From positions 263,837 to 327,836 of the forward strand of contig FN648398.1 of NCBI GenBank assembly GCA_000310025.1: a stretch of DNA of 64,000 nucleotides, given 5' to 3'. Positions 9,134-42,000 of this stretch are shown one piece after another. Position 1 is the first letter of the stretch; every line of letters starts with the position of its first letter. The translations under genes were made by a program, and so were the position numbers. Below the pieces are notes generated by a model. The model was not told where the DNA came from. It ran no database searches and was given only the letters and a program-made list of their open reading frames with translations. Source of the stretch: Ectocarpus siliculosus (Eukaryota; Sar; Phaeophyceae; Ectocarpales; Ectocarpaceae).

Positions 9134-12100
9134 ATGGTGTCCATGGCGTGCTGCGCTGCAGTGAGCAGTGTGAGCCTCAGCTTGCTGTTGTTGAAGGCAA
9201 CGGCGTTCGTGCCCGGTCCTTCGCTCCCGACACGGCAGCGGGCTCCACTGCCATACCGTGGGCAAGCTGCTGCTGCCTCCTCCATCAAGGACGAGCTGCG
9301 GTGTTGTGGCCGGGAGAAAGGGACGAGAAGACGCCGCAGCCGCCGTAGCCCGGAGCTCTCGAGACTTGGCGCTGGCGGCGGCAACAGTCCACCTCTGGAG
9401 GTTGTTGTTGATAGCGAACACCTGCAACATGTGTTGGCAATGACTACTGGCGGCTGTTTCCTACCGACGCCTGATACAAGTTGTTTGATCCTGTCTACCG
9501 TCCTTGCTTCCGCACAAGTCGACGTGGAGCATGTTTTTGAGTGCTTTGCCTGCCTAGCATAGATTCCCATTCCAGGTTGTGCGGTGTGCGGCATACATAG
9601 TCTATGTCGCACGGTACCTGTACACTCCTTGCTGTACATGTACTTTGTGTAAGATCGCTGTTTTGTCCACGTAGGATCGGGAGCCAATCGAGCTGCCACC
9701 GAACTGAGGGGGTTGGGTCTGTAGCGCGCCACGACTCCCCTCCCCTCGTCCTTACAAGTTCTGAGCCACGACATCGTGAGAGTGCGGCGTGCAAGGGTAG
9801 GTGATTCGCTGGTCCGCTGCTGAGTTGTCGTCGGCGCTTTGTAGTTCCGGTTCAAACTGGAGCTCACCCGGTCCCACTGCTTGTGCAAAGTAGACTGTGA
9901 GTCGCTCCCGCGACGTCGAAGGAGAGGCGATGATTTGCCTGATCGTGCAAGACTTCGGGTAAGAACACGATTCGTTCCAACCAATTGGCAGGTTTTGAGG
10001 AACGACAACGCCAGGGTGCGGCGGAACCTCGAGCGCATCCGTCAGGTGGAACGGGATGACACCAAGACGATCCGGGCCATCACCTCGTCGGCGCTAAGGG
10101 GGAAGCTACGCCTGAGCGGCCGAGATAAGCGTGGCCGCGTGTTTCTCCCGAGGTGAACAGGTCTCCGTGTGTTGTTATCGTTTTGGAGCTTGCTCAGGGA
10201 TCGGCTTTCATCACTGGAATACCGCTTGCATGCCCGAATTCAGACAGGCTGGTCGATTGCGGGAGATCTGCGGGTGCTCTTGCGTGGTGCGGGACGCGTT
10301 CATATGCCGCGGGACTAGTTATGTAATACAAGGGCGGTGGACGCGGGGGGCTACCGCCCCCATCGTCCCCCGTTTGAGAGTCGATGCGCATACGAAACGA
10401 ACGGTATAACGGTGTAACCTATTTATGTGATGAGGTAAGCTAGCAGTTTTTTTTCCAAGTTTGAAACACATACCAAGTGGGACGGGTGTTCGTTACAGCA
10501 AGAGAACGATAGACGCAGGTTCGAAGTCGAGCGAAGCGTGCGTCATCATGCTCTCATGCTCTCCGTATACACTTAGGCCACCGGCTTCTCTGAAGCAAAA
10601 TGACAATTGTTGAACGAAGGTTGAAGCTTGTGGCGCACACCGTGTGCATCTGTCTGTCTGTGTGTGTTTTTTTATTAGGAAAAATAAATGCACACACAGA
10701 AAGACTACCCATTCGAGATATACCCACGTTCGAACGGGGTGTGGTGGAGTCTTTTCTGTGAGTGGGGGGAAAACCGGCTGGGTACTGGACTTAATTCGAG
10801 TCTATTTTAAGTCTTTACACTGATGATTTATATCAGTGACACCAGCTGGTCCTAAGTACAAAAACATCTGTAAAGGTAGCCTACATCTTGCAATACATCC
10901 CCTGTAGTTCTCTACTGGGTCAACGACAAAAATATCGGGGAGAATCCCTCCGTCATGTCGTGTGTGTGTGTTTTTAGCATTAGCATCGACCGCGCTAATC
11001 GGGTGACCAATGAAAAGACGTCAGTCTTAGTGCGGTTGAAAACACGAAACACTTTTATCTAAATTCCATTGACTGGGACCCCGTGAGGGTGTAACATGTC
11101 TGTGTGTGTGCAAGTGTGACTTGTACCATATAGCTATATTAGCCGTGAGACTACAGCAACATACAGCAGTCATCGTTTTACAAACATACACACACACCCC
11201 GTGTCGTTCTCCTGACTACAGCAGAGAGATCCAGCACACAGAACTGATGAGAGACATGAGCATAATGCACGTGATATGTGTTCCGAGTTCCGAGAGTCAG
11301 TTGCCGTCTTCCGTCTTCTCAATTATTTCCGGAAGAAATAATTCTCGGAATATCCTGCAAGTTGCCGTTCCTTTGACATTTTTGGGAAAGATGAGATGCT
11401 TGCCTGTGCGTGCAAGTTAGCAGTGTTGCACAGCAGTCCCTAGCACACGATGGGCACATGATGGATGGTGCATAAAGCGCTTACGTACCATTTAGTGGGA
11501 AGCAGACATGTGCGGGCTATGCATATGTGGTTGCTACATTAATTATAGACATGTTCCGAGTTTTGTGATAACTTCAAGTTCCCAAAAATACCCCGAAGAC
11601 AGTCCCGTCCAGTAAGATCGCTTGTTCTTTACAGTCCCGAGCGGAGGGGTCCGAGGTATAGAGAAAAAGTGCGACGACGTGGTTTTGAGCCGTCCCGCCG
11701 GCGCGCGCAGGTCGCCCGTCGCTGGACGCCCGGAGCCCCGAGCGGCGGCGTCTCGCTGAGAGAGGGCTCCCGGCGGGCTTCGCGGAGCGGGAGGCCGAGC
11801 GGCGGCCCCTGCGTCGCGCGCCAACACTCGACGCTATCGTGTCGACTTGAGAGTACGCGCAATCCCGCCTCTTCGCTCTCAGGCGCCGAATGGAGGCCTG
11901 CGGTGCGCCCTCAGCCTGAGCTAAAATTCCTTACCTCTATTTTCGTTTCGTTTATGTTGCGGTTGAGGGTTCTCTCGAGGCATGGGCAACGTTCCTTAGC
12001 GTGCGCAACAGCACCGAAGAAACGGGCCACGGGCGCTCTGGGTTCCTCTTGGCACACGAAGACCCGACCCGTTCAACATCTCACGATTGTTTCCCGTACC

Positions 12101-15100
12101 TACTTAACACCATGCCACTCTGCCGACGACTAGTAGCCACTCTCCCGACGACTAGTAGCCACCCTGCCGACGACTAGTAGCCACCCTGCCGACGACTAGT
12201 AGCCTGTACTCTCATTCTGTTCCACCTCAGCCCATATAAATATGAGTGCAAACTGGTGTGATGTTAAATTTTGAACTACCAGGAAGACAAGGGAGTAGAT
12301 AAAGTACTTGAGGTTCCGATGCTGGACGGATATGTATGGATCCAGCGGCATGACTCAGCCCCCCCCGCCCCCGCCCCCCCCTACGTCTCGCAGAGATCCC
12401 GCAGGCGGCTCTTTGGAAACCCTCCGCCGGATGCTGAAGGAAACATTCCCGCTGGGAGACTTCCCTGTGGCCCTCTACGTAAGTCGACCCTTCGAAAATC
12501 CGACTTATGTGTGTGCGAGGGATATTTTTATCCGAGGTTGTGTTTCGTGCCGAAGGGGATCGGTGGTTTTCCCTTCTTTGCCTTGCAGCTATCTGGTAGC
12601 GTCGTTCTGTCCGCCTCACACCGGGTGTGTGCTGTTGTTGGAACCCAAGCAGAAGCAGAGCTGCTGATGCGTGCTTTGCTCTTCACGGCAATGAAGACTT
12701 GCTGCACAAAGTTGTGCGGTGGCCGCCGCATTTCTACAGAGGCACCCATGAACGCTACTGGGTTCTCCTGTCCTCTACAAATCCTATCATGTTTTTCTTT
12801 CACTCTCGCGACCCTTATAATTGCGTACACCGACGTAACGCCCCCATGCCCCTCGCCCATTGGGTTTGACCCTCTCTACTCTGGGGACATGTGTTGCCAT
12901 GCCCCCCGCCCTTAAGCTTTGACCCTCCGCTCATGAAAATCACCGGCTGCTGCGTGCCGTTCAGCAAGACGAGGTGGCTTTGATACGATGCTTTGGTGCA
13001 TGCTCTTGGTGTTTTCGTGGACCTCTCAGGTTAAGACCAGCCTCGGCGAGGACGCTCAGCGGTCGATGCTTACGTCGGACGAGGGCTTGCTCGGGGCCGT
13101 GGCTTGGGCGGAAGGGCAGGGGTTGGATCTGAACGTGTTCCTCGATGTGGTGAGTCCGTTTGTGTGCGTGGCTCGTGCAAACAGAGACAGATTTCGGCTC
13201 GTGAACAAAGCTCGGGGCCTAGGGGTGGGTGGGGTCAACATCTACTCTCTGAACAGACCACCCTGGATACATTGATGCCAGATATGTATGTGCTGGCCAC
13301 TTGTAGCTTCCGTGCGACACCAGCAGCGCCTCGGCTCGAAACTCACCCAGCTTGCACTTGGCCGGTGTATTCGTGTCGCAGTGCTGTCGTCTAGACCACT
13401 AAAGGTGAACGTAAAAGAGGCCGCTGTTTTCGTGAGGTGTTCCGCATATGTCCCCCGTATCCCCGTTGTGGCCTTCTCGCCTGGAATTGCCGTTGCAGCT
13501 TTCCTCGCGTGTGTTGCTGTTGCCGTGTTGTACTCTCTCGCTCTTGATGTCAGTGATGCTGCCTCAAAATACTAAATGTTTGCTGGTGCTGGTGCTGCTT
13601 CTGCACATTTCGTAGCACTCGAAGTAATTCAGAGGATCAGGCACAGATGCTTGAGGAGTTCTGCACGCCTTTTAGCAACGACCTGAAGCCTAGCCTCTCC
13701 CCCTGATTCGCTCACGGGCGTCTCGCTCACGATCCTCTTGTTCCCTTCCTCGCAACTTCCTTACCCTTCTGTTGTTGTTGCCGTCGACCCTTCTCTTGCT
13801 TTGTGGTTGCGTTGCTGTTTGATTTGTGATTGCGCCGTCCCTCCTTGACACAGCACCCAGACTACGAAGAGGAGGAGGCGCCGGAGTGGCTCGTCGACGT
13901 CCCCGACCCGGACTCGGCGCCGGAGTGGGAGATGCTGAGCTTTTACCGTTTCGTGGACATCGACCAACCGGAGGCGTTCGCCAACATGCTGCAGGTTTGG
14001 TGTTTCGCCACACTCTGCTGTTGGAGCGCTGTTTTCTGTGCAACGTGTTGTCATACTCATGTTTTCGAGTACTAGTTGCCCGGGTTTGTTTTCTCTGGTG
14101 CTTAGTGTAGTCGTGGGACAAATAGGAGTTCGCTGTCTTCTCTCTGTCATCGGTTCTGGGGATTGGCTACATGTCCTGAAGGGTGCGTGTCGTGGCGATC
14201 GCGTTGTTGCTTTCCATTCGCTGCTGCGGGTGCTGCAATGCCGGCAGAGCAGCCAGCTTGCAGCGTTTTATCGACAAACACCTTCCACGAGTCTTTCGCC
14301 ACCACCGTGTCTAGGCCCTTATACTCGAGGGCTTCTTTTGGTGCGGTTATATTGCTATATGGGAAACCGGACAACAGGCGGAATTCTTCCATGGTGTTCG
14401 AGGCGGGTCGTATTGTGAAACATGCTGTATCCGGGTTTCTCATTTTAGCGGGATGCGTGCACCACCGATGCCGGTACGCGGCGACGGTACCTGTGCCCCC
14501 GAAAAAAGCAACCAGCTCTCTCTCCCTTGTTGGCTTTTCTTGTGCGTCGTTTCATGGAACTTGCTTCGCCTGTTGCCCGTTGTTGTCCCTGCGTCCCGCG
14601 TGCGCCCCGAATGCGTCCCATGTGCCTAACGCGTGCGTTCCGCGTGCGTTCCGCTCCCATGGTGCTGCTGGCCGCCCCGGCGGGCAGCTGGCGTGGGCCC
14701 CGCTGGGCGTGCGCGGCCGCGTGTACGTGGCGACGGAGGGAGTGAACGCGCAGATGGCGGTGCCGTGCACGTCGACGGAGAGGTTCGAGAGAGCCGTTGA
14801 GGCCGTCGAGAAGCTGGCCGGCGTGTGAGTGATTTTTTCATCTGCACGGTTGTGGGTTGGGGGTAGGCTGCTGATTTGGGTCTGTAGCTGTGGTCTTGTG
14901 GGACAAACCAGGTACAGAGTGCACCGTGCTGTGGAAGCTACGCTCTGGGTTGCGGGCTTCGGGACTGTAGCCGAAGTCTTGCGGGATCAAACTAGCTGCT
15001 TGGTGCAAGGGGGCCACCGGATTGGCGTGGGGGAGGGGGGGGGGGTTCCGGGACTGTCATGCTCGCACCCGAGGGGAGAGTAGGACGAAGAACGCCGCAT

Positions 15101-18100
15101 GCAGTGGGCATCACGTGGAAACCTCCTTGGCACCCTTCGAAGCAGCGAGTTTGGGGTGCTGAGTTGAGCACGGGTGCGATGGTCATCAGAAGGGATACCG
15201 ATACTTGCAGACTTTTGTTTTTTTTCAACGGGGATGGCGAGAGATTCATGAAATGTCGTTACAGGGCCTCATCATCCTCGTTTTCCTTCTCTATATTCGG
15301 CTTTGCGGTCGGTTTTTGTCCGCCCTACAACAGCTAACTTGCCAATGGCCTAACAGCTAAGGCATGCAAAATATAAGTACGCCCCCCCCCCCCCCCCATG
15401 CGTCGATTCGTCAAACGGGATATGTATGTATGCTGCGAGAAGGTACCTGAACAAGGCAGAGCGGCGGTGGAGCGGGGACGAGTTTCGAGAATCGCCTCCG
15501 TTCCCCGCTCTGCACGTGAGGGCGAGGAAGCAGATTGTGGCGGATGGGCTGGCTCGCCCTTTGGAGTGGTCGGACCGGTGAGTGAGTGAGTGAGTGAGTG
15601 ATTTGTACTGCTGTGACTCGCCAAGGATTTGGACGGCCTTGGGTGATGTTGCTGGTGTGTGTCGGCTGGGGAAGCTTCTGCTGGAGCTGTTACTGGTGGT
15701 GGCGATGATGCTGCCGCTCTGGTGGTCGTGGTCGTGGTCGTGGCTATCGTCGTCGTCTTGTCGCCGACTCTGATATGGTGATATGGTGATATGGTGATAT
15801 GGTGATATGGTTGCGTTATGTTATTGTAGCGTTCGTTTTTTGAGTGGCGGGTGTTTCATGTAAGGATGAGGATGCCGGTGACACAGGCACCAAAAGTGTG
15901 CTGGTTATCCGTCAGCGGAGGAAGGTCGTGTGCTCACCGGGCTTGGTTGCTACTCTTTTTCTCTCTCTCCCCATGGTGCTTGTATTTTCCCGTGGGCCTC
16001 TTTCGTTTTTTTTTTTACCGTGGTTGCCTTTCAGGTACGGTAGCAGCAACGCTTGAAAATTGCGCCATAACGCCCGCCCCGTCCCGATTGCAACCTCGAA
16101 TCGAACCGCAGCCTAGCACGGAATCTTGACACACAGAATCGTTTTAGTCTGGTATCGTCTCGTGCTACAGATAGCGCTCGTTTAGTGCTGCAGATAGCGC
16201 CCGCGGCCAAGAACCGCATGCTGAGCATTACGGTCGACCTCGGTTGTCCGGTTAGGGACACACCTGTTTTTTTGCTAAAGAAAAGTGTTCTTAAGCCGGG
16301 GAACTTGCCTTGAGGGCGATACCCCTCCTTACGTACATTCTGCGAGCTACCATGCCCGTGATTTTCTTTTTTTTTGTCCTTAACCGAGGGAGTTTCGTTA
16401 ATTTTGGTGTCCTCAAGCGAGGCACGACTGTTTGTCGAACGCAGGAAGTTGAGCACCATTTGTGAACCCAGTTGAAAAACCCTACACTAAAGCGTCCATT
16501 TGTAGCCCACAAGAGGAACTACTGCTGTACTGCAAGAGCCCCAGCCTCGACCAACACTAGAGGTTAGTGATTCCGGTCGCTATGTATCTGTATCCGATAT
16601 TTGTCCTGCCATATTTCCCCCCCACAGGTCCGGTAAGGTCGGGAAAGAACTGTCGCCCGAAGAGTGGCACCAGATGATGGACAAGGAGGAAGGCGCCACT
16701 CTCCTGGACTGCAGAAACTCGTGAGTTTTTCGAGGGGAGAGGGGTGACGGGATAAGATGAGCACTGGTGGGGGGAGGGGGGGGGGGGTAGAGTGCTACGT
16801 GCAGGTTGAGGTGCAACGGCCGCCCTTAGAGCCACAACGCGAACCCGGAGAGCTTGCCGTGGCGGTAGTGTTGGCTTTGGGTGCACTGCCTTTTGGGCAG
16901 TCTTGACCCGCCCCGGTAAACGCCGCCTTGGCTTCGAGGAGCGAAATTGTCCCGAAACGTTGGTACTGTGGATTGCTTGTCGTCTCGTCCTTGGTGTCTG
17001 GCCTGTGCATCGGCTTGTTGGTGCCTCTCGTGGTTTGGGAAGGAGGTGGAGGCGAGGTTGGGCAGGGCACCGGCCAGTGGCCTTTCGGGAACCCTGTTTG
17101 TGGTCTTGTCTTGAGCCCCCCAACACACGGAAAAGTCGTAGCAAGGGGGGGTGCTCGAGGACGCAAGTCCCCGCCGCACAGAATCAACCCAGGGCAAAAC
17201 ATCGCACGGCCAAACCAGGAGAGCAGGTTTTTGGGGTGGGCATTGCCCGGGACTAAAGGGGAGGGATTGGGAGAGGTGGTGAGCGTCGTAGCAAGAGAGG
17301 GTAGATGGCTGTAACAATGGCCCAGAGGAAAGTCTTACCCAATTTTCGATTGAGGTTCGTGGTCAATGAGCCCGAGCGCAACACCTCTACCAAGTGAAAG
17401 TGGTTGGTGGGCAGGGGGTCTGGACAACTGGACAAAACGTTTGGTGAGGCTTGAGTGATCAGTGCTCCTTTTCCTTGGCCGTTGGCCGTGCCCAGCTTGC
17501 TTCGTCCGACGGTCGTGCGTTGTTGCGTGTGTTGTTCCCATTATTCCCCAAGCTACCGATTCATTCCCGACCCCCGACGTCCTCGAGGTCAATGGCCAAA
17601 CGACTATATACGGCATGCGCGACTCTGAGTACACCCCCGACGACCTCTTTTTCCCTCGCCGCCCGAAGGTACGAGAGCGTCGTCGGAACCTTCGACAAGG
17701 CCCTCCCTCTGGACACGAGCTTCTTCCGGGAGTCTTGGGGGGAGCTCGAGCGGCTGGTCGGCGACGCCGACCGCGATGCGCCCATCATGACCTACTGCAC
17801 CGGCGGCATCCGCTGCGTCAAGGTGCGGGGGTGGCGTTGTGAGCGAGTACAGCAGTGCGCACCGAATGGGGCCCCCGTGTCTTGGAGGGGGTGGGTGGGT
17901 GTTTTATTTGCGGTGCTTTTGAGTCGCGCCGGTGGTTGTCAAGGCGGGGGACGTGCCACAGGTTGCATTAGATACTGTGCCACACCAGTAGGGTAACATT
18001 TTCTGTGGTACGCAAAAGTTATCACGCGGGTGTGGTATTCTGCAGGGGGTGGGTGTGATATGTTTTGCCACCCGTATGGTAAAGTGCACTCACTGAGCCC

Positions 18101-21100
18101 CGCCTACAGGGTGTGTGATAACGCCGCACGTGTGAGCAAGTGCGCTCAGAGCAGGAACCCACTTACAGGGTGTGATGAAAGGGGTGTTTGAAAGGGGTAA
18201 GCAATATGATCTGTTGGTGCGGGCCTCTGCAGTGATGCGGTGTTGTGCACGGTGGCGGAGGGAGTCGTCTCAGCAGGGACGACGCGCTCCCCCTCGGCGG
18301 GTTGAAGAAATGACGTCATGGAGCGTGTAGCCGCCGGTGGCGTTTAGACCTACAGCAGGCTGAGGCGCTCGGCTTTCACATGGGTTGTTGACTGCACGTT
18401 GTTAACTGCACCCCTCTCCACGGTATTTTGTCGACCTCCATGGCTTTTGCGCGCATGTTGCTTCGCTTGCGTGCTTGTGGTGGCATGTTGTCACGTTGTC
18501 CCACCGTGGGTCATAAGCGGGCTCCGTCGACAATATGCGGCTCAATCGTGTGATGTAATTACGGTATTTTCCGGGCTTATGATGGCTCTCACGGCTGTGG
18601 TATTCTGTAGCATTTCGAAGGGGGGGGGGGTGGTGTCTTAATGCAGTCTACGGTAACGTTCTTCTTTGGGGTACCCAACTAACGCAGCACAGGACTCCAT
18701 AGTGCGAGTCTCGCTACCAAGGCCGGGGACGAAGTACGGAGCCCCGTACCGTATGTGTTATGGTGATACGCGTATACCATATCACATACGGCACGGGGCT
18801 CGGCACTTTGTCCCCGGCCTGAGTAGCGAGACTCGCAATATGGAGTCCTGCGTTGTGTCGTTGGGTATCCCAAAAGAAGAACGTTCCGGAGCCCCGTACT
18901 ACCGTAGGTTGCATAGGCTATCAATCACACTTACGTAGATACCATACACCCTTCGAAAACGTACACAATACCTCACCCGTGTGCTATGTATTAACTCAAT
19001 TAGCGCAACACGGGACTCCATTTGGAAAACCGGGGTCTTGTCGACAAAGCCGAAGCGGGCTTTCCCGCGAGCGTTCCCCCCTCGATCCGGCAATAGGGAC
19101 GTGCTTCGGACGGAAGTCGAGGCGATGTAAGCTGCAAGTATTCGCGCGCCGCTGGTCCGTAGTTGGCTGAGGGACAGAGAGAGAGAGACGGACAGCGACG
19201 CACACAGGGAGACAGAGGCACAGACAGAGACAGATACCGAATGCTTCTTCGTGACACAAATGCGGGCTGCTGCGGTCCTTGTGTAGAGTGTGCGTACCTT
19301 CCCAGCGCGCGGGCACGTTTCAGCAACTAAATGTCGCGCCCTAATTTGTTGCGTTTTTTCGGGTTCGGGGGAAAACACGTTGCCCTATTTACCAGATTGC
19401 GGCGTACCTGGAGCAAGAGATGGGCTTCACGAACGTGACAAGGCTGGGGGGCGGGATCATCTCGTACGCCAACTTCGCCAAAGAGCGAGGACTGGAGTCC
19501 AAATTCAAGGTACATTGTTCATGCCGACCGTTAATGTTCCGTGCTTTATGCCTGGACAAGCAGGGGCCGGGGAGGTGCCACACGGTTGCGATCATATCTG
19601 TGAGATGGCTTTTGTTTCTCGCAGGCATTCGCATGATTTTTTTTTTTTCCCTTGCGATATCGCCGATGCCTGTGGGCTGACACTGAGTTCCGTCTCCCCG
19701 TCTTTCTTCCCTTTTTTTTTTTTTTCTCTAGCGTACAATTGTGCCGACGTTTCACGACACCGAGAAAAAACACGGCAGCTTTTACCACACAGGCTCCGCG
19801 TTTCCCGATGTACCAGGCTTTGTTTTTCCCAACCCCCCACCCTCCCTCCTGCTGTAGATGAAGATGGTTTTTTTTCTTTGTCCTCGGCAAGGGGGGGGCT
19901 GGAGGTCAACCTCGAGGAGGTGTGGGATTGGAGTTCTTGTGGGGGAGGGTGGATGCAGCTGCCACATTCATGACGTATCTCTCCGCAAGACCCTTCGTGG
20001 ATGGATAGGACGTCCGGTGCGAGATCTTGCCTCGGTATGGGTTTTTGCCTGCAAAGCACAAGCACGCCTTCGTCTGATGTCTCGCTGCTTGTTGTGTCTC
20101 TGATGTATGTCAGGGCGTGAACTACGTGTTCGACAAGCGCATGGGGGATAAGGTTACCGGCGACATGCTGTCCAAGTGCCACCAGTGCGGAGTGCCTTGC
20201 GCGGACCACACCAACTGCGCCAACTCGTGTTGCCACGCTAGGCTCATCCAGTGCGAAAGGTACGTTGTTGTCTGTTGTTGTTATTGTGCATTGATGCCGT
20301 TACTTGTGAGATACGCCGGCGGGAAAAGCCCCAACGATTCCCTTCCCTTCGACCCCTAACTCTCCGCATCGCGAAAGACCGGTGGCGCCTTCGCACAACT
20401 CGCAGCCACCGCCAACCCTCGGACTTCCAACCCTCGCCGCCCTTCGCCTAACCCCTCCCTCCAGCTGCGCTTCGAAGTACAAGGGCTGCTGCAGCCGTGG
20501 GTGCGACGACCAACGGTCCCGCGAGGACCTTCGAGCGTCGCTCATGCGCTCGGAACGCGAGGCGATGGGGCTTCCACCTCTGCCGACCCCGCCGTTACCC
20601 TTAGACTCAACTCCGACGGCGGCGGGTGGGGCAGGAGAGGCGGTCGACGATGACGCCCAGGGCGGTGTGCCCGGGTCTGCTGGCCTTGAGGAAGCGACAG
20701 CGATAAGGACCGAGACGCTGGAGGATGAGGGGGAGCTGCTGTGGCTGGTCTGGCCTTTCCAGGTACGTTGTAAGGTTGAGGGATCAGGGTTCGCCCGACC
20801 ACGTCGCCAAGCGAGTCGCTGTCATCGTGCGATGCGTATTGGTGCGGCCACAAGAGGGTTTTTGATTGGCCCGGTCCACACGTTGTGGTGGGAGCGGAGG
20901 GATTTGCGATCCCTGTTTTTTTTTTTTTTCTGTTTCTGCTTCGGCGGTGTGTGGTGAGAGGGGAAACCGGGGTAAAGGCGTGGCCTGTGTAGCAGGCAAC
21001 GCAAGCCTCGTGCACAATCTAGAAGGATTTGCCGCGTGGGGAGACTGTGACGGTGTGTCATTTTACCCCCTTCGTTGTTTCTGACAGTTGGGTGGGCCAC

Positions 21101-23560
21101 GAAAATCGAAAGGTGGAGTGATGGCCGCCCTCTGTCCTAGCACAACTCCCCGCGCTCTGTGCATTTCCGCATCTTTACGTTGGGGGCCACACCCACCCAA
21201 CGCACAACTGATGCACGGCACCCCCTCCCGGCCCAACCACAGGATCCCACCCTGAACCTGATGTTCGACCGCGCCTTCGACGAGTATCGAGATTCAGCCC
21301 CGACGGGCGATGACGGCAGTACCGTGGAGCAAGACTCGTCGAGGATGATCGGCATCGTCTCCAGGCTCGGCGGCGGCAAGCGGGCGCTGGCGGTGGGGCT
21401 TGGATCCGGTGGTGCGGCCGGTGAGGTTTATGTACGGGTCGGAGTCGTGGTGGTGCTGTTGAATTGATGCGGTACTGTAGCCCGCAACACAACTGAATGT
21501 GCGGTCGATATCGAGTACAACAGTTCATCCTCTTCTTAACACTACTTGATGTTGGCTGTTGACGATAATTCCCACCCCGGCCGGGCAAACGGTTCCAACA
21601 TGTCCCCATCCGCTCTTCCCGTTCCTAAACGAAAAGGTCGAGCCGGCTTGCGGCGGCTGGCGGAGGCATTAGGGGAAGGGGGTGAGCTGTTCGTGGTGGA
21701 GGCGTCCTACGAAGCGGCAAGCGCGGCGCGAGGCCTTTCCCTTGTCGCTCAGGGACGAGGCTGCAGGTACGATGCGGTACGATGGACCCACCCGTCCCTT
21801 AGGGTTTGGCGCTGGGTGCGGGGTGGGGGGTTGCGGGGCGCGAAAGGTTAGGCTGGAGGAAGGTTAGGCGCTGTTTGTTCACGGCGGCGGTGGTCGGCGA
21901 TGTACCTGGCAACAACGCGGGGGGCGTGGGTTGCACGAACGGGAGGGGTGCACCCAAGCCTTGGGCGGAATGTTGTTCCGTCTCTTGCGTTGAAAGAAGG
22001 GGCTGCGCACCAAGCCTTGGGTGGAATGTGTTTCCGTGTATTGCGTTAAAAAAAGGGACTGCGCACTTAGCCTTGGGCGGAATGTTGTTACGTGTGTTGC
22101 GTTGAGCGGAGGGGTTGCGCACCAAGCGTTGGGCGGAATGTGTTCCTTTTGGTGAGTTGAAAGAACGGTGAGGAATGCTGTTCCTTCTCGGGGCAGTCAT
22201 GTAGTCATGTTTGTGTGTGTAGCGCACATGTTTGTGCTTTTGTTAGTTTTTTCGTCATTGCGTTCCCGTGACAGGCTTCCGCTTGTCCCACAAGACTGTT
22301 TCCTCAGCTTCGGTTTTAGTCTCGTGCTGTGGTCGTTGCTCCCGTTGGGCGGCCAATGGCCATGTACAGCAGTGCCAGCAAAGCACGTGGGACCGTGAAC
22401 CGGTGTAATAGCATGCGAGCAAATTACCACGCGTTCAAGGTGAGTTTTTGCCCCAGATCTGCGAGTCAAAACCACCTGCGCCTCTCGTGCCGTGGCTGGC
22501 GCCAAGCCCTGAGTAACCCGGGGTCTATTTGGCATTTTTTCAAGGCCCACGCCTCTCCCACCTTCGAAGTCCGCGAGAACCGTTGAAAACCAAGACAACG
22601 TTTCCGTCTTTGTGCGTTGTATGATACAATTCTCCGGAATCTGTGTACCAGTATATGCTTAGGACCCACACCCGTCCCACCTTGGAATTCCGTGAACGAA
22701 CCAACGCAGCGTGACCGTGTTGGTTTGCGACGAGGGGGAGATGCTCCAAAGTGTTACCAAGGTCGTTGCCGGAGCCGATTCGCCGAAGGCCTCGACGGAG
22801 GCGGCGGCGGCTGCGGTGGGCAAGGACGGGGACGTAAGGCCGGATGGGGCTGCTCATCGGTCTGCGCGGGGTGGGCTGTTCGACGTCATCTTGCTTGGCG
22901 GAGGGGATGGGGTGGAAGGGGCGGGGTCGGTCCCGGTTAGGGAGGAGGACCGCACGCCATCCGAAAGACTGGACCTTGTCATGGACAGGCGAGTGCGAAG
23001 GAAAAATCCTTGCAAATGCACACAGATGTGTGTTTTGTTGGGGTGCTGATGTTGAGGGTCTTTCATTACGAAGGGCTCGGTGACCGACGTGTCCTCTTGG
23101 GTGGACGTAAAAAACGGTGAAAACGCTCTCAGTGGCACTAGGGAGAAAGAAACACAACCATGATGTTAGACAACTTTTTACGTTGGAGATAGGTCGGCAC
23201 TATCTCACAGCAGTTTCATCTTGACGGATGTCTCCGCGATAAGTCATGGGTTTGTTCAGTTTCAGCCGTCCACGTATGTCAAGACCTTAATGGCCACCAC
23301 CCATTTAGCTCACGTCACACGCGATGACCCTCTCCCTCCCCCGCCAACCGCCTCGTTGTGTACCAACTGCCAGGCGACTCATGAAGAGAACCGGGCTGGT
23401 GCTGTGCGACCCGCAAGCTCTCGGGGGAGGCCGGGCGGCTGCGAGATCGATGGTAGCGCGGGCGGCGGAAGTGAAGGGCAGCGTTGAGCACGCTAGGGTC
23501 CCCGGGGCTGGGCCCAGCGGGGGGTTGCACGTGTTCAAGTGGAAAACGTATTCGCACTAG
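9134..23560 (+). CDS. Plastid-targeted TrhO-type rhodanese fused to a methyltransferase-like domain
   Basis: Exons: 9134-9400 (tentative), 9992-10152, 12394-12478, 13030-13149, 13854-13994, 14688-14824, 15440-15577, 16628-16720, 17669-17822, 19396-19509, 20114-20259, 20465-20762, 21243-21420, 21637-21766, 22710-22988, 23374-23560. Phases match at every junction, giving about 875 residues. The N-terminus is a signal peptide ending TAFVPG, a heterokont plastid signal. The middle is a full TrhO/YceA (UPF0176) module: FYRFVDIDQPEAF, RVYVATEGVNAQMAVP, FPALHVRARKQIV, LSPEEWH, LLDCRN, the active-site loop YCTGGIRC, VNYVFDKRM, and a Cys-rich tail (KCHQCG, NSCCHARLIQC, CCSRGC). A new domain follows: AVGLGSGGAAG (motif I-like), ELFVVEASYEAA, FDVILLGGGDG and RTGLVLCDP, ordered as in class I SAM methyltransferases. 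TrhO makes 5-hydroxyuridine at tRNA position 34; action on plastid tRNA is inferred. The exon 1 donor (GTTGTT) is weak. The exon 15 donor is GC. Confidence 0.85.
10960..11090. repeat. Dispersed repeat, copy 1
   Basis: This segment shares an ordered set of blocks with 25225-25345: a TGTGTGTGTG run, CATCGAC, a TGACC(A/T)ATGAAAAGAC block, GTGCGGTTGAAAACAC, AAACACTTTT and a terminal CCCC(G/A)TGAGG. The spacers differ by small indels. The pair is probably two copies of one old non-autonomous element. Confidence 0.7.
11690..11830. other. GC-rich island inside an intron
   Basis: About 140 bp is strikingly richer in G+C than its surroundings, with repeated CGGCGG and CCGGCG words, and is flanked by ordinary intron sequence. 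It has no convincing reading frame linked to the host gene. Its origin is unknown. Confidence 0.5.
12123..12204. repeat. 22-bp tandem repeat, four copies
   Basis: The unit CCGACGACTAGTAGCC plus a six-base linker starts at 12123, 12145, 12167 and 12189. The copies are nearly identical, with C/T and G/C variation only in the linker. It lies in the second intron of the rhodanese-fusion gene. Confidence 0.9.
15578..15602. repeat. (GTGA)n microsatellite at a splice donor
   Basis: Exon 7 of the rhodanese-fusion gene ends at 15577 and the intron opens with six consecutive GTGA units. Each GTGAGT in the run is a good donor sequence, so alternative donors at 4-nt steps are possible. Only the first keeps the downstream phase. 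Confidence 0.8.
15773..15812. repeat. 8-bp tandem repeat (GATATGGT)
   Basis: Five units of GATATGGT in a row in the seventh intron of the rhodanese-fusion gene. Confidence 0.85.
18655..18885. repeat. Near-perfect 231-bp palindrome (foldback element)
   Basis: Two arms of about 115 bp meet at position 18770 with almost no spacer. The outer ends are AACGTTCTTCTTT (left) and its complement AAAGAAGAACGTT (right). Inner blocks such as GCGAGTCTCGCTAC / GTAGCGAGACTCGC and the GCCGGGGAC / GTCCCCGGC pair confirm the symmetry. Short complementary flanks (CTACGGT on the left, ACCGTAG near 18900 on the right) suggest a longer original element. It lies in an intron of the rhodanese-fusion gene. A shared 20-bp word (GCA-CAC-GGACTCCAT) also occurs near 19000-19020, hinting at a relative. 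Confidence 0.85.
21945..22165. repeat. 56-bp minisatellite, four copies
   Basis: The core CACCAAGCCTTGGGCGGAATG recurs with the TTGGG word at 21961, 22017, 22073 and 22129, a constant 56-bp period. Each is followed by TGTT(T/A)CCGTGTNTTGCGTT and a purine-rich spacer. It lies in the intron between exons 14 and 15 of the rhodanese-fusion gene. Confidence 0.9.
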
Positions 23561-39000: not shown

Positions 39001-42000
39001 GCTGTCCCGCCGACGTTACTAACAAGTGTCCTATCATAAGGTCCCACTTCACGCATGGAGCAGCCTCTATGTACTCCGTGACGGCGCGGTATGCGCAAAT
39101 CTCTGGGCAATCCGGGTCTGCTAGCACCACCACTGCCTCGATGCACGCAGCTGCTTGCCAAACTGAAAATTGAAAACCAAACCGCGCGACTTTTTTTTGT
39201 GGAGCTTGAGGATCTAGGACCCTAACGTAAACGATAAATCGAAGCCCCTGCGCATCGAAAAAAACGCCAGGGAAAACAGGCGACATCCCGCGTCAAGCCA
39301 ATGCGCTCCGCAACCTGGGGCGCCACTTGCGCGCGAGACCACATGTCGCTGAGGAGGCCCACAAGCGTGTGCGCTAGCACAGGTGGAGTCTGGTGAACCG
39401 CCACTCCTACCTTCTTCTGTTCCTCGGATACGATAGTAAGGTACGAGTCCACCATAGGGCTACCACACGGGTTGCCTACTTGGCGGATGGGGTCCCAGTC
39501 CGCGCCTTCCCGTGCTCCTTCAACGCCATTTTAACTTGAAGACGAAGCCTGTGCGGAGCGAATCGGCCGCATAACGTCGAGCGCACGTTGACCCCGCGAG
39601 GCACCTGGCGGCCCTCGGGGAACCCACGCCCGGGCACGCCCTATCATGCACCATCTTCGTACCTTTTCCTTGTGTGTCCAGAAAACAAAGAAAATCGAAG
39701 ACATTGTCCGGGGTCGCGGTCTGCCAGCCCCGGCAGCCCGCGGAGGCTACCAGCACAAACGCATCAAATTCATCGGCCACCCGGCTTTTCCGCACTTGCC
39801 CAGGGCGCCCTGCCATGGCGGCTAACGCTTGAGCGCGACTGGCCTGCACCTGAGCCACCACGAGGGCACTTGCTGCGGGTATCGCGGCGTCGGTAGGGCC
39901 CGATTGGAGGGGACCCCACACCGAGTATGCCACTGCTTCAATAGCCCATGAGGGCTGGGCCACTGGAAACAACCCCATTGAGCCCGCGAGGCCACCGTAA
40001 CCGACCGGACCGCTGCAATTTGCACCAACGGAAACCAGTACGCCTTAAAATCGGGCAAGAGAAGCACCGCACGTGCCTTACACTCGGCCAAATGCTGCAC
40101 TATTTGCCCGTTATTTCTGGGGGGGGCGAAACAAAAGCCAAAGGCCGCGCCGGTACCCCTCGGCATGACCGAAACATCCTGAGCTAACACATCAACACCA
40201 GCGGAGCCTGGGAAGTCATTTTGCGAGAAAATGGGGAGCGGCTCCTGAACACCCGGGGGCCGGAGAGCCGACGCGGTGCATGCCATGAGGTTGACCGTGA
40301 AGGGGTCCAATTTACTCCACACCAATTCGAAAGCTGCGGGGGAGATCCGAATCGTAGCCTCGCGTGACGGGCGCGAGATGGCATTCGCCACGCCATTCTC
40401 CTCCGTCGGAACCCATCGCAGCGAGGGCATGAAGTCATACTCAACCTGCAGCTCGAACAGCTGCACGAGCAAGGCATGCGCCTCGCGGTTCCGGGCGCGC
40501 CCGCGATTGAACGCGCTAACCACCGACTGGTTGTCCATATCGACGAGTACTTTCGCCCGCCTCAAGATGTCGGGGAACCGAGCACAAAACTGCTGTAGCA
40601 GGTAGTATAGCGCGTACATCTCCTTCTGGTTGATATGTTTGGAGAAACAGTCCTCCGGGAACACCCGCCCCGCGGAGAAGGCACCCGCCACCGTGCGGAC
40701 TACTCCTTCCAACGCCACGGACAACGCGTCCGACGCCCCCGTTTTGAGGGCCGCGGTGAAGTGCCGCGCCCGCCGCCACGCTCCTGCGACGTAGCCGTGA
40801 TGCTCAACCACTGCTTGAACTCGCCGACCAGGTCGGCGCTAGCGTCACACGAAAGGTCAATGGAGGCGATGCCCGACTTGTCCAAGTCCGCAAGGGCACG
40901 GAACATAGCATGCGTCCGCAACGACGCCGGCCGAACTGCCACCGTCATGCTCAGCATTTTCCGGCGATGCGCTGGAGTGCACGAAAAGACAGCCGTCCGT
41001 CATCCACCGTCGTACGTAGCAATAGCTGCAGTTTGTCCAACTTGTCCTGAGGCACTCGAAACGTGGCCGTGGAGGAGTCGCACATCATGCCGAGAAACTG
41101 CTGCAGTTGCTTCGGTCGCAGATTGCCCTTCTTAGCTGACAAGAATTGGCCGCAGAACAGGGAGACCAGCATCGCGATATGGGTAGCCCCCCCCCCCGCT
41201 GCAAGCCATTGCTCTCGCGCGGAGGCCCCCAGGGAAGTGAGAAAGTTGCGGATCCAGGAGCCATCGAGGTACGCCAGTGCCGGGGTGCCTTTGGAACCAA
41301 GAAAGGCCGACTTAGCCTCGCTGCGGATATGGCACACCCACGGGCTGAGACTGAACCCGAAGGGGAGGACACACAACACGTAGTCGACCCCTTCATAGCA
41401 GAAACCAAACAAAGGCCAAGAGGACGGCCCCAGCAGGATGTGATGAAACGCAGACCAGTCATCCAGCGACGTCATGTAACATCCTTGGGTCGCGACGTTC
41501 GCCACCCGAGCCACAGTGTCCTTCGAGAAAGGGAACCTCTTGACCCGCTTGTTGAGCCGCCGCCCATCGTGGACCATGTCCGGTTTTGTTTCTTCGACGG
41601 ACAGTGCCATAATCAAACGCGGCCTCGACGGTCCATCGGGGCCGCGCATAGCAGCCCACTTCGCGACACGCCCTCGAACGCCGGCGGGATACGGTTCTTG
41701 AAGGCCGGCCCGGGGAATTGGTCCACCGCATGCGGACAAGTCGAGGACGGCCCGCGGTAGTCATCCAAAAGCAAATCGTAGAGGTCGACGCCATCCTTTA
41801 GGAACGACACCAGCTGATCACTGAACGGGAGTATCACCGGCTGGGAAGCGGCCAGCCCCCCACCCCACCGATGAGGCGCGGCCAAAGGAGCGAAGCCCGT
41901 GGGCGGGACGCGGGCCTGCTGGGACCCTCCCAGGGACGAACCCCAGCGGAACCCCGCGGTACACCCCCCCCGACCCTTTGCCGGCAGCGCGCGCGGACGA

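What the first reader, a model, noticed from the sequence alone, without database searches (positions are those of the whole stretch)
9134..23560. TrhO-type tRNA hydroxylase module fused to a SAM-methyltransferase-like domain in a predicted plastid protein
Seen: one phase-consistent exon chain carries a complete TrhO/UPF0176 rhodanese (active loop YCTGGIRC plus the C-terminal Cys cluster). It is followed by AVGLGSGGAAG, ELFVVEASYEAA, FDVILLGGGDG and RTGLVLCDP, which have the spacing of class I methyltransferase motifs. Known: in bacteria TrhO makes 5-hydroxyuridine at tRNA position 34 and separate enzymes (TrmR, CmoB) modify the hydroxyl. Inferred: this fusion could perform hydroxylation and methylation of wobble uridine in plastid tRNAs as a single protein. 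The methyltransferase call is from motif pattern only, and motif I is Gly-rich but not classical.
Basis: partly seen in the sequence, partly recalled or inferred. Interest (0 to 1): 0.8.

Follow-up and report, generated by a model that had tools for sequence, protein, structure and literature searches.

The report
tRNA hydroxylase with degenerate methyltransferase domain
This algal-type gene joins a tRNA-hydroxylating enzyme to a second domain that looks like a tRNA methyltransferase but seems to have lost its active site; such fusions were already known in related organisms.

Summary
A 16-exon, phase-consistent model (9134-23560, 874 aa) encodes a TrhO tRNA-uridine-34 hydroxylase followed in frame by a further domain. 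The TrhO part is solid: three Pfam domains, the NCBIfam TrhO model over its cut-off, and the four loop residues essential in E. coli conserved. The C-terminal part has no significant hit in Pfam, NCBIfam or PDB sequences, but aligns to a bacterial COMT/Methyltransf_3 profile (hhalign P = 8e-5, 123 columns). Of 243 decoy ORFs 3 score higher, all 3 SAM methyltransferases. Its function claim is doubtful: in that alignment the motif-I Glu, first metal Asp, Lys and metal Asn, invariant in 31 bacterial relatives, are lost; but the second half of the domain does not stand on its own. The fusion is not new in kind: Sakai et al. 2019 report trhO-trmR fused genes in Phytophthora sojae, P. ramorum and Phaeodactylum. 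My reading: a predicted plastid hydroxylase of the known stramenopile TrhO-TrmR fusion type whose methyltransferase half looks catalytically degenerate, with a weak PB1-like N-terminal region. No fold was predicted and no transcript was seen.

The parts
9134..9400 (+). Exon 1: hydrophobic N-terminal segment, then KATAFVPG (ASAFAP-like) and an Arg-rich stretch; plastid-type bipartite presequence by motif
   Evidence: Sequence, hydropathy and charge. ASAFAP as plastid motif: abstract of PMC4329603 as shown in the search listing. Donor is weak; no targeting predictor was run.
9992..10152 (+). Exon 2: start of weak PB1-like region
   Evidence: Phase; PF00564 E = 0.05-0.07, below Pfam's cut-off
12394..12478 (+). 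Exon 3: PB1-like region
13030..13149 (+). Exon 4: PB1-like region, end
13854..13994 (+). Exon 5: start of TrhO (UPF0176_N)
   Evidence: PF17773 E = 1e-21, aa 236-335
14688..14824 (+). Exon 6: TrhO UPF0176_N
15443..15577 (+). Exon 7: TrhO; holds R330 and R332, aligned to E. coli K112 and R114
16628..16720 (+). Exon 8: TrhO rhodanese domain, start
   Evidence: PF00581 E = 1.9e-8, aa 358-453
17669..17822 (+). Exon 9: rhodanese domain with active loop YCTGGIRC at 17793-17816
   Evidence: C423, T424, G426, R428 align to E. coli C200, T201, G203, R205
19396..19509 (+). Exon 10: rhodanese domain, end
20114..20259 (+). Exon 11: Rhodanese_C, first part of the Cys cluster
   Evidence: PF12368 E = 3.8e-17, aa 469-531
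20465..20762 (+). Exon 12: end of the Cys cluster and a linker, in the same open frame that leads into exon 13
21243..21420 (+). Exon 13: COMT-like domain, first helix and motif I (AVGLGSGG; Glu of motif I replaced by Ala)
21637..21766 (+). Exon 14: COMT-like domain, second strand with kept acid (FVVEAS)
22710..22988 (+). Exon 15: COMT-like domain with low-complexity insert; FDVILLGGG, first metal Asp position reads Gly; GC donor
   Evidence: this half is not above shuffles when tested alone
23374..23560 (+). Exon 16: COMT-like domain, LCDPQA (metal Asp kept, Asn position reads Pro), last strand GGLHVFKWK, stop
   Evidence: same caveat as exon 15

Best explanation
A nuclear gene for a predicted plastid-targeted TrhO hydroxylase of the known stramenopile TrhO-TrmR fusion type. 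The TrhO part uses O2 and the rhodanese loop cysteine to make 5-hydroxyuridine at position 34 of tRNAs that read family codon boxes (shown for E. coli TrhO; inferred here from conserved residues). The C-terminal domain descends from a COMT/TrmR-like O-methyltransferase (inferred from a remote profile match and from the published fusions) but has lost the metal site, so it is most likely not a working Mg-dependent methyltransferase. It may still bind tRNA or SAM and position the substrate for the hydroxylase (speculation). ho5U, rather than mo5U, would then be this protein's product.
For: TrhO: Pfam UPF0176_N 1e-21, Rhodanese_C 3.8e-17, Rhodanese 1.9e-8; NCBIfam TrhO 189.6 bits against a cut-off of 170; PDB tRNA uridine(34) hydroxylase 1.2e-36; loop residues essential in E. 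coli (PMC6599085 section 13, passages) kept. C-terminal domain: hhalign against 31 bacterial Methyltransf_3 proteins P = 8e-5, probability 61%, 123 columns; 3 of 243 decoy ORFs and 0 of 120 shuffles score as high, and the 3 are methyltransferases by Pfam; spermidine-synthase and UbiE profiles give P 0.005 and 0.012 over 21 and 38 columns. By hmmsearch 0 of 4000 shuffles reach it. Residues: invariant in 31 of 31 relatives and absent here are the motif-I Glu, first metal Asp, Lys, metal Asn and the Asp of DGL; kept are the motif-I glycines (31 and 30 of 31), the strand-2 acid, the second metal Asp and the Gly of DGL. Metal ligands are described as two Asp and one Asn, essentially invariant in COMTs (PMC6543040, passages). 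Fusion precedent: PMC6599085 section 8.
Against: Tested alone, the first half (end of exon 12 to exon 14) is reached by 1 of 4000 shuffles, but the second half (exons 15-16), where the metal residues lie, by 346 of 4000. That second half scores better against the spermidine-synthase profile (7 of 4000 shuffles as high), though through LLGGGDG matched to that family's motif I, out of the order expected here; the whole domain is reached there by 12 of 4000. The statement on lost ligands rests on the alignment being right in that half. With hmmsearch 6 of 243 decoys score above the main model, 3 of them not tested for what they are, and the unsplit 874-aa protein is reached by 3 of 4000 shuffles (smaller profile). 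No fold was predicted and no transcript was seen. I could not check whether the published fusion proteins keep the ligands.
Confidence: 0.5

Rival explanations
1. A working bifunctional enzyme: TrhO makes ho5U34 and the fused domain methylates it to mo5U34, perhaps without metal or with shifted ligands.
For: Fusion with trmR is reported in related organisms; SAM-side features (motif-I glycines, strand-2 Glu) are kept; G000 gave no match to the CmoB model or to peptidase U32/TrhP, so an mo5U route would fit better than cmo5U. Mutation of the conserved Lys did not abolish activity in Rv0187 (PMC6543040, passages).
Against: First metal Asp and metal Asn are absent in the alignment; COMTs are described as requiring a divalent metal. 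Missing matches in G000 do not show absence.
Confidence: 0.2
2. The C-terminal part is not methyltransferase-derived at all; it is a lineage-specific GC-rich extension whose motifs resemble a Rossmann fold by chance.
For: No significant Pfam, NCBIfam or PDB sequence hit; second half not above shuffles with the COMT profile; Ala/Gly-rich composition.
Against: hhalign rank among decoys and shuffles; the alignment follows the expected order from motif I to the D-N motif; published trhO-trmR fusions.
Confidence: 0.2
3. Two genes: TrhO ends in or after exon 12, and exons 13-16 are a separate downstream gene.
For: Exon 12's frame runs open past the donor to a stop ending at 20957, so a shorter transcript could end there. 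No transcript data.
Against: Consensus-like donor and acceptor (CAG|GTACGT, CCACAG|GAT) with matching phase; the intron is only 480 bases; a TrhO plus TrmR fusion has precedent (domain order not stated in the text I saw).
Confidence: 0.1

Closest known systems
trhO-trmR fusion genes of Phytophthora sojae, P. ramorum and Phaeodactylum tricornutum (Sakai et al. 2019, PMC6599085)
   Same: One gene carrying TrhO (yceA) and a TrmR-type domain, in stramenopiles
   Different: Those sequences are not held here, so it is unknown whether they also lack the metal ligands. Phytophthora has no photosynthetic plastid (recalled), so the fusion is not tied to plastids.
TrhO (UPF0176, YceA; E. coli, B. subtilis YbfQ)
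   Same: All three domains, the CTGGIR loop and the C-terminal Cys cluster; 39% identical to the TrhO on an E. coli plasmid record; the 80 bacterial loci kept are 40-45% identical, by title mostly Bacteroidota (capped list)
   Different: Presequence and PB1-like region, extra C-terminal domain, seven introns within the TrhO part (exons 5-12)
TrmR/YrrM and COMT (Methyltransf_3, PF01596)
   Same: Order of motif I, strand-2 acid, FD strand, D-x motif and last GL strand
   Different: Not detected by Pfam; motif-I Glu, first metal Asp, Lys and metal Asn not present; a 39-residue low-complexity insert
Free-standing COMT-family gene of the same genome (G000 contig C7, L152)
   Same: Same family by Pfam model
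   Different: Keeps a motif-I acid (DIGT, Asp), DADK, DNVL and DGL; its start was not determined; the frame with its first helix holds KGKRKRKRED and no obvious signal peptide

Membership tests
TrhO (tRNA uridine-34 hydroxylase) | UPF0176_N, Rhodanese and Rhodanese_C domains in order | tested here: met
   each above Pfam's cut-off
TrhO (tRNA uridine-34 hydroxylase) | NCBIfam TrhO equivalog score over the curated cut-off | tested here: met
   189.6 bits against 170
TrhO (tRNA uridine-34 hydroxylase) | C200, T201, G203, R205 (essential in E. coli) | tested here: met
   C423, T424, G426, R428 (essentiality from PMC6599085, passages)
TrhO (tRNA uridine-34 hydroxylase) | Basic surface residues K112 and R114 | tested here: met
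   R330 (Lys to Arg) and R332
TrhO (tRNA uridine-34 hydroxylase) | Makes ho5U34 with O2 | not testable with these tools
   needs an assay
TrmR / COMT (PF01596) | Score over the family's Pfam cut-off | tested here: not met
   no PF01596 match listed at E up to 10
TrmR / COMT (PF01596) | Remote profile similarity above decoys | tested here: inconclusive
   Met over the whole domain by hhalign; second half alone reached by 346 of 4000 shuffles; 6 of 243 decoys higher by hmmsearch
TrmR / COMT (PF01596) | Metal ligands Asp, Asp, Asn | tested here: not met
   Gly, Asp, Pro at these columns, as far as the alignment is right there
TrmR / COMT (PF01596) | Methylates ho5U34 (TrmR) | not testable with these tools
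   needs an assay
Stramenopile TrhO-TrmR fusion | TrhO and a C-terminal domain in one spliced reading frame | tested here: met
   gene model only
Stramenopile TrhO-TrmR fusion | The second module is TrmR | tested here: inconclusive
   COMT-like by remote profile, ligands not met; no sequence of the published fusions was available
Plastid-targeted stramenopile protein | Signal peptide plus ASAFAP-like motif | tested here: inconclusive
   hydrophobic N-terminal stretch and ATAFVP, with 14 basic and 5 acidic residues in aa 25-89; no predictor run; species not established

The most novel reading that the evidence does not exclude
A plastid wobble-uridine hydroxylase that carries a pseudo-methyltransferase: the TrmR half of an ancestral two-step enzyme lost catalysis and was kept as a tRNA- or SAM-binding control domain, leaving ho5U34 as the final modification in these plastids, with a PB1-like module for docking to a partner.
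Probability: 0.3. Interest if true: 0.55.

Novelty: new variant of a known kind. Interest (0 to 1): 0.35.

Why it matters
Whether plastids carry xo5U-type wobble modifications is open: a review states that xo5U derivatives were not found in Chlamydomonas reinhardtii by mass spectrometry, and its table, as I read its columns, gives family-box U34 of plastid tRNAs as unmodified U or U* (PMC8877259, two passages). A plastid-targeted TrhO in a secondary plastid predicts ho5U or mo5U there, and the state of the methyltransferase half says which. That is a direct mass-spectrometry test.

Tried and rejected
Rejected: an exon candidate at 19732-19830; TrhO continues correctly from exon 10 to 20114 without it.

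Rejected: the viral-contig hit L154 to the C-terminal domain; it lies antisense to a 584-aa ORF, which looks to me like a phage recombinase-type gene (not searched).

Rejected as chance: C-terminal hits to PG_isomerase_N (E = 5) and to sensory rhodopsin transducer chains in the PDB (E = 0.22 and 1.2).

Rejected as evidence: the first spermidine-synthase and UbiE control profiles were cut in wrong frames and rebuilt; there 2 of 7 spermidine-synthase rows (L130, L136) are still fragments of 104 and 103 aa. One search used an hhm file that hhalign misread (error); its numbers are not used, one search replaces it. One search timed out without output. One search was a mis-specified query. One search failed and was repeated.

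Dropped rows and selection: the 31-sequence profile leaves out 7 of the 38 loci L092-L129 (L106, L108, L109, L110, L111, L127, L129), which I judged partial or of another family. ORFs were picked with a pattern that asks for D or N at the first metal position, so 31 of 31 there is partly by selection; the Asn and Lys columns were not selected on. The 243 decoys are ORFs of 180-450 aa on both strands of the 80 TrhO loci; some are not genes and many are orthologues of each other. The no-insert variant (P = 3.5e-6) removes 39 residues by hand and is post hoc. The splice variant 'both' is weaker (12 of 243 decoys as high).

Searches that led nowhere: TrhO and the C-terminal domain in viral contigs, the C-terminal domain in plasmids, a second copy of the C-terminal or N-terminal domain in G000 (only the window itself). 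PF00421 gave no match in G000, so I did not look for plastid tRNAs. Bacterial fusions: none seen in 80 TrhO loci with about 2.5 kb flanks (longest frame with the loop motif 503 aa); among 653 ORFs there the best Methyltransf_3-profile match has 13.8 bits.

Not run: structure prediction. The tool asks for a protein that the DNA gives letter for letter; this one exists only after splicing, so I did not send it.

Full report
What was checked. The window lies in a 189-Mb assembly of 492 contigs and unnamed origin. I did not establish the species; a stramenopile source is an inference from the ASAFAP-like presequence. Sixteen exons with matching phases give an 874-aa protein. The coding signal in exons 13-16 is above that of introns and of the other frames, so the C-terminal exons look like real coding sequence in the same phase.

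TrhO part. Pfam finds UPF0176_N, Rhodanese and Rhodanese_C, each over its cut-off; NCBIfam calls it TrhO over the equivalog cut-off; the best PDB sequence hit is a tRNA uridine(34) hydroxylase. Loop residues whose change abolished activity in E. coli (C200, T201, G203, R205; PMC6599085 section 13, passages) are kept, as are the two basic surface positions, one as Arg for Lys. The scan patterns came from this protein and two enterobacterial ones, so this says little about origin. A second, divergent UPF0176_N gene lies on contig C19.

C-terminal part. No library names it: Pfam gives only PG_isomerase_N at E = 5, NCBIfam nothing, the PDB two chance-level hits at E = 0.22 and 1.2. I built a profile of 31 bacterial Methyltransf_3 proteins from genomes reached. 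hhalign aligns the domain over 123 columns at P = 8e-5. Of 243 decoy ORFs 3 score higher, and Pfam calls all 3 methyltransferases; 0 of 120 shuffles do. By hmmsearch 0 of 4000 shuffles reach the domain, but 6 of 243 decoys score above the main model, and with a smaller profile the whole 874-aa protein is reached by 3 of 4000 shuffles. Against the domain, UbiE is a chance-level profile (85 of 4000 shuffles as high) and spermidine synthase a weak one (12 of 4000). Split in two, the first half stands with the COMT profile (1 of 4000) and the second does not (346 of 4000); the second half scores better with spermidine synthase (7 of 4000), by matching LLGGGDG to that family's motif I, out of the order seen in the full alignment. 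So 'class I methyltransferase-like' is well supported, 'COMT/TrmR-like' moderately, and the residue assignments in the second half are the weakest link.

Active site. At columns invariant in the 31 relatives the window protein reads Ala for the motif-I Glu, Gly for the first metal Asp, Asp for the Lys, Pro for the metal Asn and Gly for the Asp of DGL; it keeps the motif-I glycines, the strand-2 acid and the second metal Asp. COMT enzymes are described as needing a metal held by two Asp and one Asn (PMC6543040, abstract and passages). A free-standing COMT-family gene with a motif-I acid, DADK, DNVL and DGL exists elsewhere in the same genome. This points to a degenerate second domain in the fusion.

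Known before. Sakai et al. [quoted passage not shown] ramorum and Phaeodactylum tricornutum (PMC6599085; sections 8, 9 and the first part of 14 read, and passages). The text calls them bacterial species; they are stramenopiles (recalled). The fusion is therefore a known kind. The listings shown by my paper searches held nothing that I recognised on a brown-algal copy or on its methyltransferase residues; (brown alga, rhodanese, tRNA modification together) found 0 papers. This covers only the held open-licence library and its capped lists. The TrmR paper of Ryu et al. 2018 is not held.

Other anatomy. Exons 2-4 encode a weak PB1-like region (E = 0.05, 14 bits against a cut-off of 23.6), which would suggest a docking module if real. 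G000 gave no match to the CmoB model or to peptidase U32/TrhP; missing matches there do not prove absence.

Conclusion. An ordinary but informative gene: a member of a known stramenopile fusion type with an intact-looking hydroxylase and an apparently degenerate methyltransferase half.

Noticed in passing
9992-13149 (exons 2-4): Weak PB1-like region between the presequence and TrhO (PF00564 E = 0.05, below cut-off).
   Followed up: partly
L153 (G000 contig C19, 2519700-2525700): Second TrhO-like gene, divergent, with frames holding YCTGGVRC and KNFVFDER; its full exon chain, presequence and any fused domain were not worked out.
   Followed up: partly
L152 (G000 contig C7, 1112300-1116700): Free-standing COMT-family gene with DIGT, DADK, DNVL and DGL motifs and a KGKRKRKRED stretch upstream.
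   Followed up: partly
22989-23373 (intron 15): GC-AG intron (ACAG|GCGAGT ... CCAG|GCG), needed to keep the frame in this model.
   Followed up: no
21954-22165 (intron 14): Tandem array, 56-base unit, 3.8 copies.
   Followed up: no
40954-41760, - strand: Reverse-transcriptase-like ORF (PF00078 E = 0.0013, below cut-off), perhaps a retroelement remnant.
   Followed up: no
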